From: Rufibacter sp. DG15C | GTDB lineage: Bacteria; Bacteroidota; Bacteroidia; Cytophagales; Hymenobacteraceae | Length of the DNA: 64,000 bases | Reading direction: 5' to 3' | Assembly (NCBI RefSeq): GCF_001577755.1 | Contig: NZ_CP010776.1 | Location: 620,001-684,000, forward strand | In this document: positions 152 through 62,602 of the stretch, piece after piece | How the letters are laid out: each line of letters opens with the position of its first letter | Position numbering within the stretch: the first letter of the stretch is position 1 | Made by a program: the position numbers and the translations under genes | Notes under the pieces: generated by a model | Seen by the model: only the letters and a program-made list of their open reading frames with translations | Database searches by the model: none | What the model was told of the DNA's origin: nothing

Positions 152-190
152 CCGTTTTAGGCTGGTTTCTGGAAAAGAGGCCAAAAACGA
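152..190 (+). repeat. Dispersed palindromic element, copy 1
   Basis: Left arm CCGTTTTAGGC and right arm GAGGCCAAAAACG surround the centre TTTCTGGAAAA. It lies between the partial gene at the window start and the flavin oxidoreductase. If translated it adds a spurious WFLEKRPKT stretch upstream of that gene. Confidence 0.8.
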
Positions 191-227
191 AAACATTCTG
201 GAGGCATCAGCGCTTTCACTTTATAAG

Positions 228-260
228 AAACGCCAGCTACATTAAGCTGGCGTTTTTGGT
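228..260 (+). terminator. Rho-independent terminator hairpin
   Basis: AAACGCCAGCT (228-238) pairs perfectly with AGCTGGCGTTT (245-255) around a 6-nt loop and runs into a T tract. A nearly identical hairpin stands at 15331-15360, also just after a palindromic element. It probably ends transcription from upstream of the flavin oxidoreductase. Confidence 0.75.
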
Positions 261-321
261 TTTGTACATAACTTTCGGCTTTCAGCCGAGGTACACGTCA
301 CTATCTGCAACTCACTCTCTT

Positions 322-1392
322 ATGGCTTCACTTTTCACACCGCTCACCCTTAGAGGCATCCAGCTTAAAAATAGAATTGCCATCTCGCCCATGTGCCAAT
401 ACTCTTCTGAGGACGGATTTGCCAATGACTGGCATCTGGTGCACCTGGGTAGCCGGGCCGTGGGCGGAGCCGGCCTCATTATTCTGGAGGCTACCGCCGT
501 CTCGCCCGAGGGAAGGATCACGCCAGACGATTTAGGCCTTTGGAAAGACGAGCACCTCCCGTTTCTGGAACGCATCGTGTCATTTTTGCACAGCCAAGGC
601 TCGGTGGCCGGCATCCAGCTGGCGCACGCGGGCCGCAAGGCCAGCCACACTTCTCCCTGGAAAGACGGCACTGCTATTCCGCCGCAGGCTAACAATGGTT
701 GGCAGACCGTGGCGCCCAGCGCCATTCCTTTTCTGGAAGGTGAGCCTACGCCATTGGCCTTGGACCAGGCAGGCATTGACAAAGTCATCGCAGATTTTAA
801 GGCCGCGGCGCAGCGGGCCCTCACGGCGGGTTTCAAGGTAATTGAACTGCACGGCGCGCATGGCTACCTGCTGCACGAGTTCCTGTCACCGCTCAGCAAT
901 CACCGCACCGACCAGTACGGCGGCTCCTTTGAGAACAGGATCAGGCTGCTGTTAGAAGTAACCCAGGCGGTGCGCTCCGTCTGGCCAGAGGAGTATCCGC
1001 TGTTCGTGCGGCTTTCTGCCACAGACTGGACCGAAGGCGGCTGGACGCTGGACGACTCCCTGGAACTGGCCAAGATCCTGAAAGGCCATGGTGTGGATTT
1101 GATTGACTGCTCAACTGGCGGCAACGTACCCAAAGCGCCCATTCCGGTGGGGCCCTTGTACCAGGTTCGGTTTGCTGAAGAGATAAAAAAGGAGGCGGGT
1201 ATCATGACCGGCGCCGTGGGCATCATCACCACCAGCCAAGAGGCCGAAGCCATCGTTTCCAGCGGACAGGCTGACCTGGTGCTGCTAGCCCGCCAGTCTT
1301 TGCGGGACCCCAACTTCCCGCTCAGGGCCGCGCATGAACTAGGCGAAGAACTAGAATGGCCGGTCCAATATGAGCGCGCGAAGTTCAGGTAA
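322..1392 (+). CDS. namA: NADH:flavin oxidoreductase, Old Yellow Enzyme family (YqjM/NamA-like)
   Basis: A 356-residue FMN-dependent TIM-barrel ene-reductase, which would reduce activated C=C bonds with NAD(P)H. The N-terminus carries SPMCQYS, with Cys25 and Tyr27 where the YqjM branch has its flavin-tuning Cys and Tyr. [16 protein letters not shown] and the following [10 protein letters not shown] are classic family motifs, and a phosphate-binding GAVG segment lies near the C-terminus. The length fits YqjM (about 340 residues). The frame is open upstream to 130, but that part reads through a palindromic repeat and a terminator, so ATG 322 is taken as the start. The gene is single, flanked by palindromic elements on both sides. 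The physiological substrate is unknown. Confidence 0.9.
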
Positions 1393-1420
1393 TCTGAACT
1401 AGCTGCTATGTTATCATTCA

Positions 1421-1470
1421 AAAGCCGTTTTTGGCCTGCTTTCTAGAAAACAGGCCAAAAACGGCTTTTT
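1421..1470 (+). repeat. Dispersed palindromic element, copy 2 (extended stem)
   Basis: The arms AAAGCCGTTTTTGGCC and GGCCAAAAACGGCTTT pair perfectly around TGCTTTCTAGAAAACA. It lies between convergent namA and the PUL regulator and ends in a T run, so it can serve as a two-way terminator. It is one of the best-preserved copies. Confidence 0.85.
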
Positions 1471-1490
1471 ATTTATAGCGGTGGCAATGT

Positions 1491-60715: not shown

Positions 60716-60721
60716 CTATGT

Positions 60722-60801
60722 TAGTCTTGAGTCTCGAGTCTCGAGTCGTGAGTCAAAATCTATAAAAGACTCGTGACTCGTGACTCAAGACTCGCGACTA
60801 A
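60722..60801. repeat. GAGTC-rich word repeat, member 3 (between atpD and atpC)
   Basis: About ten GAGTC or GACTC words, first as GAGTCTCGAGTCTCGAGTCG and then inverted as GACTCGTGACTCGTGACTCA, around AAAATCTATAAAA. The two halves can pair imperfectly into a hairpin in the atpD-atpC mRNA. Each GAGTC/GACTC is also a GANTC site. Confidence 0.7.
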
Positions 60802-60807
60802 TGAAAA

Positions 60808-62313
60808 CTATTTCGCTTCGGCCATCATTTTCTGACCCTTGGCAACGGCATCCTCAATGGTACCAACCAAGTTGAAGGCAGACTCAGGAAGGTTGTCATG
60901 CAGACCGTCCATGATTTCGTTGAAGCCACGGATGGTGTCTTTGATGTCTACCAACACACCCTTCAAGCCAGTGAACTGCTCGGCTACGTGGAATGGCTGA
61001 GACAAGAAACGCTGCACACGACGCGCTCTGTGTACTACCAACTTATCTTCTTCAGATAATTCGTCCATACCCAAGATAGCGATGATGTCTTGCAATTCTT
61101 TGTAACGCTGAAGAATCTCTTTTACGCGCTGGGCAGTGTTGTAGTGCTCTTCGCCTACTACGTCTGCGGTCAAGATACGTGAAGTAGAATCCAGAGGGTC
61201 TACCGCTGGGTAGATACCAAGCTCAGAGATTTTACGAGACAATACAGTAGTAGCATCCAAGTGAGCAAACGTTGTTGCTGGAGCCGGGTCAGTCAAGTCA
61301 TCTGCAGGTACATAAACGGCCTGTACAGACGTAATAGAACCACGCTTAGTAGACGTGATACGCTCTTGCATGGCACCCATCTCAGTCGCCAACGTTGGCT
61401 GGTAACCTACCGCAGATGGCATACGACCTAGAAGGGCCGATACCTCAGAACCTGCCTGCGTAAAGCGGAAGATGTTGTCAATAAAGAAAAGGATATCTCT
61501 ACCAGCACCAGTACCGTCACCGTCACGGAAAGACTCTGCTACCGTTAAACCTGACAAGGCTACACGGGCACGGGCCCCAGGAGGCTCGTTCATCTGACCG
61601 AACACGAAGGTTGCTTTTGATTCTTTCAGGGCTTCCTGGTCTACTTTAGAAAGGTCCCATCCACCGTGCTCCATAGACTCCATGAAGGCGTCACCGTAGC
61701 GCACAATGCCAGACTCAATCATCTCGCGTAGCAAGTCGTTCCCCTCACGCGTACGCTCACCTACACCGGCAAATACAGAAAGACCACCGTGGCCTTTGGC
61801 GATGTTGTTGATCAACTCCTGGATCAATACAGTTTTACCTACACCGGCACCCCCGAACAAACCAATTTTACCCCCTTTGGAGTAAGGCTCGATCAAGTCA
61901 ATTACTTTGATACCTGTGTACAAAACCTCAGAAGACGTAGAAAGGTCCTCAAAACGAGGCGCGTTTCTGTGGATAGGAAGGTCGCCTTCGCTTACTGGCT
62001 GTGGAATACCGTCAATGGCTTCGCCAATTACGTTGAACAGACGGCCTAGCACGTTATCGCCGGTAGGCATTGAGATAGGAGACGCCAAGTCGGTTACTTC
62101 CATACCGCGGGTAAGACCTTCGGTTGCGTCCATTGCAATGGTACGTACGCGGTCTTCGCCTAAGTGCTGCTGAGTCTCAAGTACCACGCGGGCACCGTTC
62201 GCCTTCACCACCACCAGGGCATCCATGATGTTGGGCAACTTAGAATTCTCACCCGAGAAGCTAACGTCCACTACCGGACCGATCACCTGGGTAATTCTGC
62301 CAATATTCGCCAT
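60808..62313 (-). CDS. atpD: ATP synthase F1 beta subunit
   Basis: A 501-residue catalytic subunit. The Walker A motif GGAGVGKT lies at about 154-161. Other landmarks are the catalytic-Glu segment [12 protein letters not shown], Walker [34 protein letters not shown] and the DELSEEDKL motif (the DELSEED loop) near 400. It makes ATP at the F1 head with the other subunits encoded elsewhere. In Bacteroidota atpD-atpC are often separated from the main operon. A minus-strand TATTTTTG box is at 62369-62362. Confidence 0.98.
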
Positions 62314-62361
62314 TTGGTTGGTTTATAAATATTTAGATAGATACAGTACTCAATCAGGGTG

Positions 62362-62369
62362 CAAAAATA
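62362..62369 (-). promoter_or_regulatory. Putative -7 box of atpD
   Basis: Reads TATTTTTG on the minus strand, matching TAnnTTTG, about 50 nt before the atpD ATG. The TTG element is not clear. Confidence 0.55.
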
Positions 62370-62561
62370 GAGCATTCTGTCTTGATTTCCATAGAAGTAT
62401 CTAAAAATCTTTGGGATTATGCCCCAATGAAAATCCTTTACCCTCACCACCTACTCTATAATATGCGTTCCGCTCTGTTTTACCCGTTATAACCAGAGGC
62501 AAGCCACCGCTCCATCACTCCCATTTATGGCCGTGACAAAAGAGCATCTTCTGCCCGATCT

Positions 62562-62602
62562 CCCGTTTTTGGGCTACTTTTCTGAAAACAGGCTAAAAAC
62601 GA
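62562..62602 (+). repeat. Dispersed palindromic element, copy 20
   Basis: CCCGTTTTTGGGC, centre TACTTTTCTGAAAACA and GGCTAAAAACG, between divergent atpD and purL, just upstream of the purL promoter box. The rest of this gap holds no gene. Confidence 0.8.

What the first reader, a model, noticed from the sequence alone, without database searches (positions are those of the whole stretch)
152..62602. A dispersed palindromic element of about 40 nt, at least 21 intergenic copies, nearly all in one orientation
Seen directly: copies start at 152, 1421, 10780, 15296, 15482, 16354, 19481, 23101, 24109, 25548, 41739, 43990, 45262, 45774, 48215, 48969, 53350, 55261, 59071, 60362 and 62562. All have arms close to CGTTTTTGGCC and GGCCAAAAACG and a centre close to TATTTYCTGGAAAACA. 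The centre is not symmetric, which gives each copy a direction. Most point the same way on the plus strand although the genes around them point both ways; only those at 19481 and 55261 look reversed and a few are ambiguous. Direction independent of genes suggests a link to the replication direction or to an insertion mechanism, not to transcription. Arms often vary together (e.g. 48215), which suggests selection on pairing. I know no described family that matches; REP/MITE-like is the nearest class.
Basis: partly seen in the sequence, partly recalled or inferred. Interest (0 to 1): 0.8.

Follow-up and report, generated by a model that had tools for sequence, protein, structure and literature searches.

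The report
Palindromic boundary element in Rufibacter
A rigid 38-base palindrome sits in over half of the larger gaps between genes of this bacterium, stays at the same gene boundaries in related species where we looked while the DNA around it changes, and looks like a landing site for an unknown protein rather than a mobile repeat.

Summary
The repeat is real: a symmetric 38-bp model finds 352 copies in 864 kb sampled, none in reversed DNA; two estimates give about 1,690 per genome. It marks one genus (Rufibacter; 16 of 16 genomes, sporadic sites elsewhere). The one-way orientation does not hold outside the window. In 43 of 351 copies the palindrome is the tip of a terminator-like hairpin and its arms co-vary; in the other 308 there is no net covariation. 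Spacing between halves is rigid (329 of 337). Of 494 gaps of 60 nt or more, 282 are occupied, only 20 by two or more copies. At the boundaries tabulated, presence is all-or-none across species (16/16, 16/16, 11/11, 9/9; 0/16, 0/7) although flanks are largely unalignable. Species have 'dialects': e.g. position 12 is C in 99% of 98 half-sites of one species. This genome has no Y1/RAYT match, no clear target duplication, one ParB, one canonical parS. Best reading: a transcription-unit boundary site for an unidentified dyad-binding protein, under purifying selection at individual sites. Protein and effect are inferred. Against: one conserved copy lies in a leader, and some pairing signal remains outside the terminator class.

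The parts
152..189 (.). element copy, 38-bp dyad core
   Evidence: 43.5 bits
1426..1463 (.). element copy in a convergent gap; 6-bp outer stem (aaaagc ... gcttttt), terminator-tip class
   Evidence: 61.5 bits
10780..10817 (.). element copy, tandem gap
   Evidence: 39.6 bits
15297..15334 (.). element copy, convergent gap, directly followed by an ordinary terminator-like hairpin (15327-15366 repeat)
   Evidence: 48.7 bits
15483..15520 (.). element copy, same convergent gap
   Evidence: 50.0 bits
16356..16393 (.). element copy, tandem gap
   Evidence: 56.0 bits
   Evidence: 38.1 bits
23101..23138 (.). element copy, tandem gap
   Evidence: 47.7 bits
24109..24146 (.). element copy, one base behind the stop codon of the ORF ending at 24107
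   Evidence: 57.0 bits
25549..25586 (.). element copy; the stop codon of the upstream ORF (ends 25557) lies inside it
   Evidence: 52.7 bits
41739..41776 (.). element copy, divergent gap
   Evidence: 56.6 bits
43991..44028 (.). element copy, convergent gap
   Evidence: 44.5 bits
45263..45300 (.). element copy, divergent gap; aligned copy in G013
   Evidence: 54.3 bits
45774..45811 (.). element copy, divergent gap; aligned copy in G013
   Evidence: 51.0 bits
48215..48252 (.). element copy, convergent gap, next to a separate hairpin
   Evidence: 36.0 bits
48969..49007 (.). element copy with one extra base at the centre (39 nt), tandem gap
53352..53389 (.). element copy in the LptF_LptG/EamA gap; a copy is in this gap in 15 of 15 other genus genomes; 6-bp outer stem here
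   Evidence: 47.5 bits
   Evidence: 59.1 bits
59072..59109 (.). element copy, convergent gap
   Evidence: 49.4 bits
60363..60400 (.). element copy, tandem gap
   Evidence: 52.8 bits
62564..62601 (.). element copy, divergent gap
   Evidence: 50.9 bits

Best explanation
The element is a duplex-DNA binding site with two-fold symmetry for an unidentified, abundant, genus-wide DNA-binding protein. The protein would bind as a dimer or dimer of dimers: each half carries two YGTTTT boxes one helical turn apart, four in all, at fixed distance. Copies sit mostly at borders of transcription units: behind stop codons or behind terminators, and more often upstream than downstream of the next promoter-like motif. 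Most likely the bound protein acts as a boundary: it hinders read-through transcription and/or pins or relieves supercoils between neighbouring units. In about 12% of copies the palindrome has become the tip of an intrinsic-terminator hairpin and is then also held by RNA pairing. Shown by sequence: copy number, symmetry, rigid spacing, position, conservation, dialects. Inferred: the protein, its binding mode and the boundary function.
For: Sharp population: 352 copies in 864 kb; reversed control 0 (on 464 kb of it). Rigid spacing in 329 of 337 copies, 8 off by one, none further within -4 to +12. No net covariation in the 308 copies without outer stem (73.7% Watson-Crick versus 74.3% shuffled, z -2.0); no preference for G-U over A-C in the transcript sense (321 versus 345, 275 copies). 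The two central bases avoid self-pairing (z -6.5 in G000, -1.7 to -5.1 in five others); in G000 they are TG in 101, CA in 91, TA in 46 and CG in 18 of 352. Conservation very uneven along the half-site (T3/T4 99%, position 12 59%), as in a binding logo. Gaps with 2 or more copies 20 versus 64.6 +- 4.4 expected. All-or-none at five tabulated boundaries round parB and present in 16 of 16 in the LptF_LptG/EamA gap. Element identity 80.8% versus 69.0% for other intergenic DNA and 67.6% at third codon positions between G000 and G013. Dialects. TAnnTTTG lies only downstream of the element in 36 single-copy tandem gaps and only upstream in 6 (about 31 of 42 expected from length alone); with a -33 TTG 13 versus 0.
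Against: No binding protein was identified or searched for systematically. In 9 of 9 species the p14/p15 copy lies behind a conserved TAnnTTTG, apparently in a transcribed leader, which a strict roadblock should not tolerate. Occupied tandem gaps still hold a terminator in 34 of 150 cases (39 of 99 without element), and convergent gaps show no significant difference. Remaining pairing signal outside the terminator class: position 6 co-varies within species (z 6.1 in G000, 5.0 in G012; 4.3 in the 308 copies); relatives without outer stem 64.3% versus 63.2% (z 2.3), and of six orthologous sets with median outer stem 0-1 two beat all 500 shuffles, two all but 6 and 11, two do not stand out. Copies are slightly more stable as RNA than column-shuffled ones (-12.0 versus -11.5 kcal/mol). 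Weak halves are not clearly compensated by strong ones. G008 and G015 have degenerate copies. The two boundaries without element are short divergent gaps (at most 111 nt), and one occupied one (p4/p5) is long (420-1156 nt), so they are weak evidence each.
Confidence: 0.6

Rival explanations
1. A REP/MITE-type mobile element, copied by a transposase in trans, that prefers gaps and terminators; present copies are old insertions.
For: High copy number, palindromic, intergenic, preference for gene 3-prime ends. An original copying phase is hard to avoid, since about 1,690 38-bp sites are unlikely to arise by point mutation. 15 of 15 congeners have 1-6 Y1_Tnp matches, strong (over 90 bits) in three, weak in the rest.
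Against: 0 Y1_Tnp matches in this genome; no clear target duplication (two-base flank repeats only slightly above chance, 25 versus 16.3 at offset 0); solo half-sites no more than control, 9 versus 9; retention in place with flanks turned over; position-specific rather than uniform divergence; no one-ended tag.
Confidence: 0.15
2. A hairpin working as RNA or cruciform DNA: a bidirectional intrinsic terminator or mRNA 3-prime stabiliser.
For: 43 of 351 copies have an outer stem of 4 bp or more (4.7 expected), followed by a T-run in the transcript sense in 22 of 26 tandem cases, and their arms co-vary (86.3% versus 80.1%, z 8.7); in relatives 15 such copies 91.5% versus 85.7%, z 3.7. At p13/p14 in 11 species pairing is kept through compensatory changes, 89.9% versus 75.1%. 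Weak pairing signals elsewhere.
Against: The other 308 copies show no net covariation, no G-U tolerance in the transcript sense, a T-run in only 17-39% by class, rigid centre spacing; the bare element has T-runs before and A-runs after the stem, the reverse of a terminator.
Confidence: 0.15
3. A self-driven sequence like DNA uptake sequences: better copies spread by biased uptake and recombination at homologous places, which would also give species dialects.
For: Dialects and retained positions; uptake sequences are also found paired in terminators in Neisseriaceae (PMC3630211, passages seen).
Against: Few in genes (22 of 352 in called ORFs), mostly one per gap, 38-bp dyad instead of a short one-sided word; competence was not tested.
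Confidence: 0.06
4. ParB or a Noc-like paralogue acts at these sites (the central 16 bp recalls parS and Noc sites).
For: Recalled resemblance of TGTTTTCTAGAAAACA to parS.
Against: One ParB_N protein in each of 16 genus genomes, as in 21 of 23 others; a single canonical parS (up to 1 mismatch) at 1,510,031, near where GC skew changes sign.
Confidence: 0.02

Closest known systems
REP / BIME elements with RAYT (GTAG and CGTC superfamilies; PMC3733652, abstract and passages seen)
   Same: Short palindromes, high copy number, intergenic, often behind genes
   Different: No one-ended tag, no Y1_Tnp match in this genome, no net arm covariation outside the terminator class, fixed geometry, positions held across the genus where tested, species dialects
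DNA uptake sequences of Neisseriaceae and their dialects (PMC3630211, start of abstract and passages seen)
   Same: Genome-wide site set whose consensus differs by species; some copies tied to terminators
   Different: 38-bp symmetric site, few in genes, mostly one per gap
Nucleoid-protein and segregation sites such as parS, Noc sites, matS (recalled)
   Same: Dyad protein sites spread over a chromosome
   Different: About 1,690 copies, mostly at transcription-unit borders; the ParB/Noc route was tested and not supported
Intrinsic terminators
   Same: About 12% of copies look like the tip of one
   Different: The remaining copies lack the outer stem and mostly the T-run

Membership tests
REP (GTAG/CGTC) elements | unpaired tetranucleotide tag at one end | tested here: not met
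   unsupervised model gives nearly symmetric ends; flank -1 is Y and +1 is R, i.e. symmetric
REP elements with RAYT | Y1/RAYT tyrosine transposase in the genome | tested here: not met
   PF01797: 0 matches in G000, 4 candidates scored; E. coli control rings; congeners do have 1-6
REP elements | stem-loop held by pairing | tested here: inconclusive
   met in the 43 copies with outer stem, no net covariation in the other 308; weak signals in relatives
MITE | target-site duplication | tested here: not met
   no clear excess of direct flank repeats of 3-9 nt in 351 copies; 2-nt repeats slightly above chance
MITE | terminal repeats shared with an IS | not tested
   only solo half-sites were counted, 9 versus 9 in control; IS ends were not searched
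DNA uptake sequence | raises uptake of DNA in natural transformation | not testable with these tools
   no experiment possible
DNA uptake sequence | also common inside genes | tested here: not met
   22 of 352 in called ORFs
Intrinsic terminator | stem directly followed by a T-run in the transcript sense | tested here: inconclusive
   T-run in 22 of 26 tandem and 7 of 13 convergent copies with outer stem; 17-39% by class in copies without
parS / Noc sites | ParB-family paralogue plus matching site | tested here: not met

The most novel reading that the evidence does not exclude
A bacterial genus has evolved a chromosome-wide insulator code: one dedicated dyad-binding protein marks most borders between transcription units at about 1,700 fixed places, and whenever the protein's specificity drifts, the whole site set is rewritten in place, giving species dialects.
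Probability: 0.35. Interest if true: 0.9.

Novelty: new variant of a known kind. Interest (0 to 1): 0.72.

Why it matters
Dispersed palindromes in bacteria are usually explained as mobile REP-type repeats. Here retention in place across a genus, rigid geometry, largely independent half-sites and species-wide dialect changes point to a protein-read signal at a large share of operon borders. If true, it would be a bacterial counterpart of a boundary-factor system, and a natural laboratory for how a protein and more than a thousand of its sites change together.

Tried and rejected
Directional element tied to replication: not supported, with the weak genome-wide asymmetry left unexplained. Covariation as a general rule: not supported for the majority; the first count on the 21 window copies already showed none (80.7% versus 81.7% shuffled). 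RAYT link: not supported for this genome. Target duplications and solo half-sites: nothing clear. ParB/Noc: rejected. Compensation between weak and strong halves: correlation -0.13 and -0.22 against -0.09 and -0.14 from truncation alone, no clear effect. Sites in other genera as a lead to an ancestral regulator: 17 of 134 non-genus genomes have 1-6 strand-hits; 16 stretches of these were read, contexts mostly unrelated and partly island-like (SUKH genes in one), shared neighbours only in two near-identical pairs plus two distant similarities; transfer or chance kept open. Literature: searches (titles and abstract starts of the listed papers only; searches list 12 of 44 and 8 of 858) showed no description of this element; the library lacks most subscription papers. 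Not done: enumerating genus-specific DNA-binding proteins.

Gene calls come from my own simple ORF caller and miss some genes and starts; 17 of the 352 copies at stretch ends had no neighbour on one side and were left out of the context counts, and 1 of 352 had too little flank for the outer-stem test. An earlier count said 1 of 24 outside genomes in words of my own count elsewhere; the listing has 23.
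Full report
What was checked. A symmetric 38-bp weight matrix trained on 20 of them and refined on the window plus 20 evenly spaced 20-kb stretches of the same genome finds 190 copies in 464 kb at 8 bits (187 at 16 bits), with 0 hits in the same DNA read backwards at each threshold. 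With 20 more stretches there are 352 copies in 864 kb. Extrapolation gives 1,688 copies in the 4,143,738-bp contig. A second estimate, 549 whole-genome matches to the 24-bp core with up to 3 mismatches (control 0) scaled by the 114 of 352 sampled copies that pass the same test, gives 1,695. The window is 620001-684000 of this contig.

Anatomy. The consensus is TYCGTTTTTGGCCTGTTTTC-TA-GAAAACAGGCCAAAAACGRA, a near-perfect palindrome. Each half has two YGTTTT boxes 11 bp apart. Spacing is rigid: 329 of 337 copies have the same distance between halves, 5 are one longer, 3 one shorter, none further within -4 to +12; reversed control 0. The central two bases avoid self-pairing (z -6.5 in G000, negative in the other five species, weakest -1.7 in G008). 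In G000 they are TG in 101, CA in 91, TA in 46 and CG in 18 of 352; in the 180 copies of the tgt region of 15 relatives CA and AG (30 each), TG (26) and CC (22) are commonest, so the TG/CA preference is not general.

Orientation. Outside it is 61:74 and 78:80, without a significant difference between replichores (p 0.12 and 0.34). An unsupervised two-orientation model does fit better than a symmetric one (gain 69.7 against 36.4-48.2 in 8 simulations), mainly through central bases, but calls the window copies mixed. GC skew changes sign near 1.5 and 3.6 Mb; the only canonical parS (up to one mismatch) is at 1,510,031.

Pairing. Over all 352 copies the number of Watson-Crick cells, centre included, is 4846 against 4873 +- 21 when one arm is shuffled among copies; without the centre 4770 against 4747 +- 19. 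G-U is not preferred over A-C in the transcript sense, 321 versus 345 in 275 copies; mean folding energy is -12.0 against -11.5 for column-shuffled copies. The flanks just outside pair more than expected without sequence conservation. 43 of 351 copies have a perfect outer stem of at least 4 bp, 4.7 expected. These look like tips of intrinsic terminators: in tandem gaps 22 of 26 have a T-rich run behind them in the transcript sense and 4 of 26 an A-rich run before them (from the printed fractions). In them the arms co-vary, 86.3% versus 80.1% (z 8.7). In the 308 copies with fewer than 4 of flank positions 2-6 paired they do not on the whole, 73.7% versus 74.3% (z -2.0), although single positions deviate both ways (6: 4.3, 15: 4.8, 12: -3.7). 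Other results against full independence: position 6 co-varies in G000 and G012 (z 6.1, 5.0); copies of relatives without outer stem are at 64.3% versus 63.2% in within-species shuffles (267 copies, z 2.3). Seven cross-species sets were tested: p13/p14 (median outer stem 6) 89.9% versus 75.1%, 0 of 500 shuffles as high; p14/p15 and p4/p5 0 of 500; r2/r3 6; r6/r7 11; r1/r2 80; r8/r9 117 (4 sequences). I attribute the sets without outer stem to dialects, which move both arms together, but pairing cannot be excluded.

Where copies sit. Of 352 copies, 313 lie between two called genes (203 tandem, 72 convergent, 38 divergent), 22 in called ORFs, 17 at stretch ends. Occupied gaps rise from 0 of 118 below 20 nt to 31 of 40 convergent, 83 of 136 tandem and 6 of 20 divergent gaps of 100-200 nt. 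Of 494 gaps of 60 nt or more, 282 are occupied; 20 have two or more copies, 64.6 +- 4.4 expected if copies fell in proportion to length. In tandem gaps of 100-300 nt 98 of 127 copies lie nearer the upstream stop codon; over all tandem copies there are peaks 0-10 nt and 50-75 nt behind it. TAnnTTTG (Bacteroidota promoter motif, recalled) lies only downstream of the element in 36 single-copy tandem gaps and only upstream in 6; by length alone about 31 of 42 would be downstream. Rates are 1.68 and 0.93 per kb, antisense 0.21 and 0.35; with a -33 TTG 13 versus 0; in divergent gaps 19 point from the element to a gene and 7 the other way. Tandem gaps with an element have a separate terminator less often (34 of 150) than those without (39 of 99; p 0.007); convergent gaps show no significant difference (29 of 49 versus 10 of 13).

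Distribution. In named loci, 4 of Rufibacter/Sabulibacter have 3-11 hits at a loose 5-bit cut-off, 19 of Pontibacter and Hymenobacter none.

Conservation in place. Around the tgt gene the LptF_LptG/EamA gap holds an element in 16 of 16 genomes, although the rest of the gap is largely unalignable. Around parB five boundaries could be tabulated (adjacent in at least 6 species, median gap over 40 nt): p4/p5 16 of 16 (gaps of 420-1156 nt), p13/p14 11 of 11 (62-181 nt), p14/p15 9 of 9 (137-202 nt), and the short divergent p11/p12 0 of 16 and p15/p16 0 of 7 (65-111 nt). Searches there used 11 bits; reversed DNA of the tgt region gave 1 hit against 180. At p13/p14, between convergent genes, an outer stem of 4 bp or more is present in 8 of 11 species. 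At p14/p15 the copies are ragged and lie behind a conserved TAnnTTTG, apparently in a leader. Between G000 and its closest relative G013 element copies are 80.8% identical (265 sites, 1 gapped), other intergenic DNA 69.0% (1,482 sites, 272 gapped), third codon positions 67.6%.

Dialects. In 100 kb per species: G013 is as G000; G012 has C at position 12 in 99% and R at position 13 in 92% of 98 half-sites, where G000 has G 59%/A 26% and T 69%; G005 has A5 in 72% and G6 in 82% of 102 half-sites, where G000 has T in 97% and 91%; G006 has A or G at position 6; G008 is degenerate and its search noisy (7 control hits against 66). A tree of seven neighbouring proteins puts G012 and G005 on separate branches, with weak support at some inner nodes. 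Other positions stay variable within each species, so the dialects do not look like a recent burst of identical copies.

What it is. Largely independent halves, fixed spacing, a centre that avoids self-pairing, uneven conservation and in-place dialect change fit a dyad site read by a protein on duplex DNA. Position at borders of transcription units suggests a boundary role; the leader copy at p14/p15 speaks for an architectural role rather than a strict roadblock. REP/MITE, general hairpin and ParB/Noc readings were tested and fit worse. The binding protein is not identified.

Limits. Gene calls are approximate; positional conservation was tested in two regions of 16-20 kb; about a fifth of the own genome was sampled; no expression or binding data exist here. 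Names of p- and r-genes beyond the Pfam matches and the parB match are read by eye.

Noticed in passing
window 54603-54640: Weak element-like stretch (21 bits) inside a GHMP-kinase ORF; a hit between the same two genes' midpoints recurs in the relatives, probably a conserved coding stretch.
   Followed up: partly
window 43882-43941 and 58908-58967: A second dispersed repeat with the palindrome CTCCCCTTGAGGGGAG, 6 exact matches in 864 kb; a similar stretch lies between two elements in G000 and G013.
   Followed up: partly
window 43804-43839, 48918-48953, 60723-60758: Low-complexity GAGTC-rich repeats of about 36 nt in gaps.
   Followed up: no
L145 (unnamed family member outside the genus), 4002-4109: Two element copies 70 bp apart among SUKH immunity-like genes, with a 145-aa gene present in identical form on either side.
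   Followed up: partly
gap r6/r7 of relatives: Another repeat with inverted GAGTCT/AGACTC parts fills this gap in several Rufibacter genomes; related words are rare in the own genome sample.
   Followed up: no
own genome G000:C1:464669-465154: The dnaA domain match lies about 1 Mb from the skew switch and the canonical parS at 1,510,031.
   Followed up: no
window 36675-39728: ORF of 1017 aa without Pfam match at E 1e-8.
   Followed up: no
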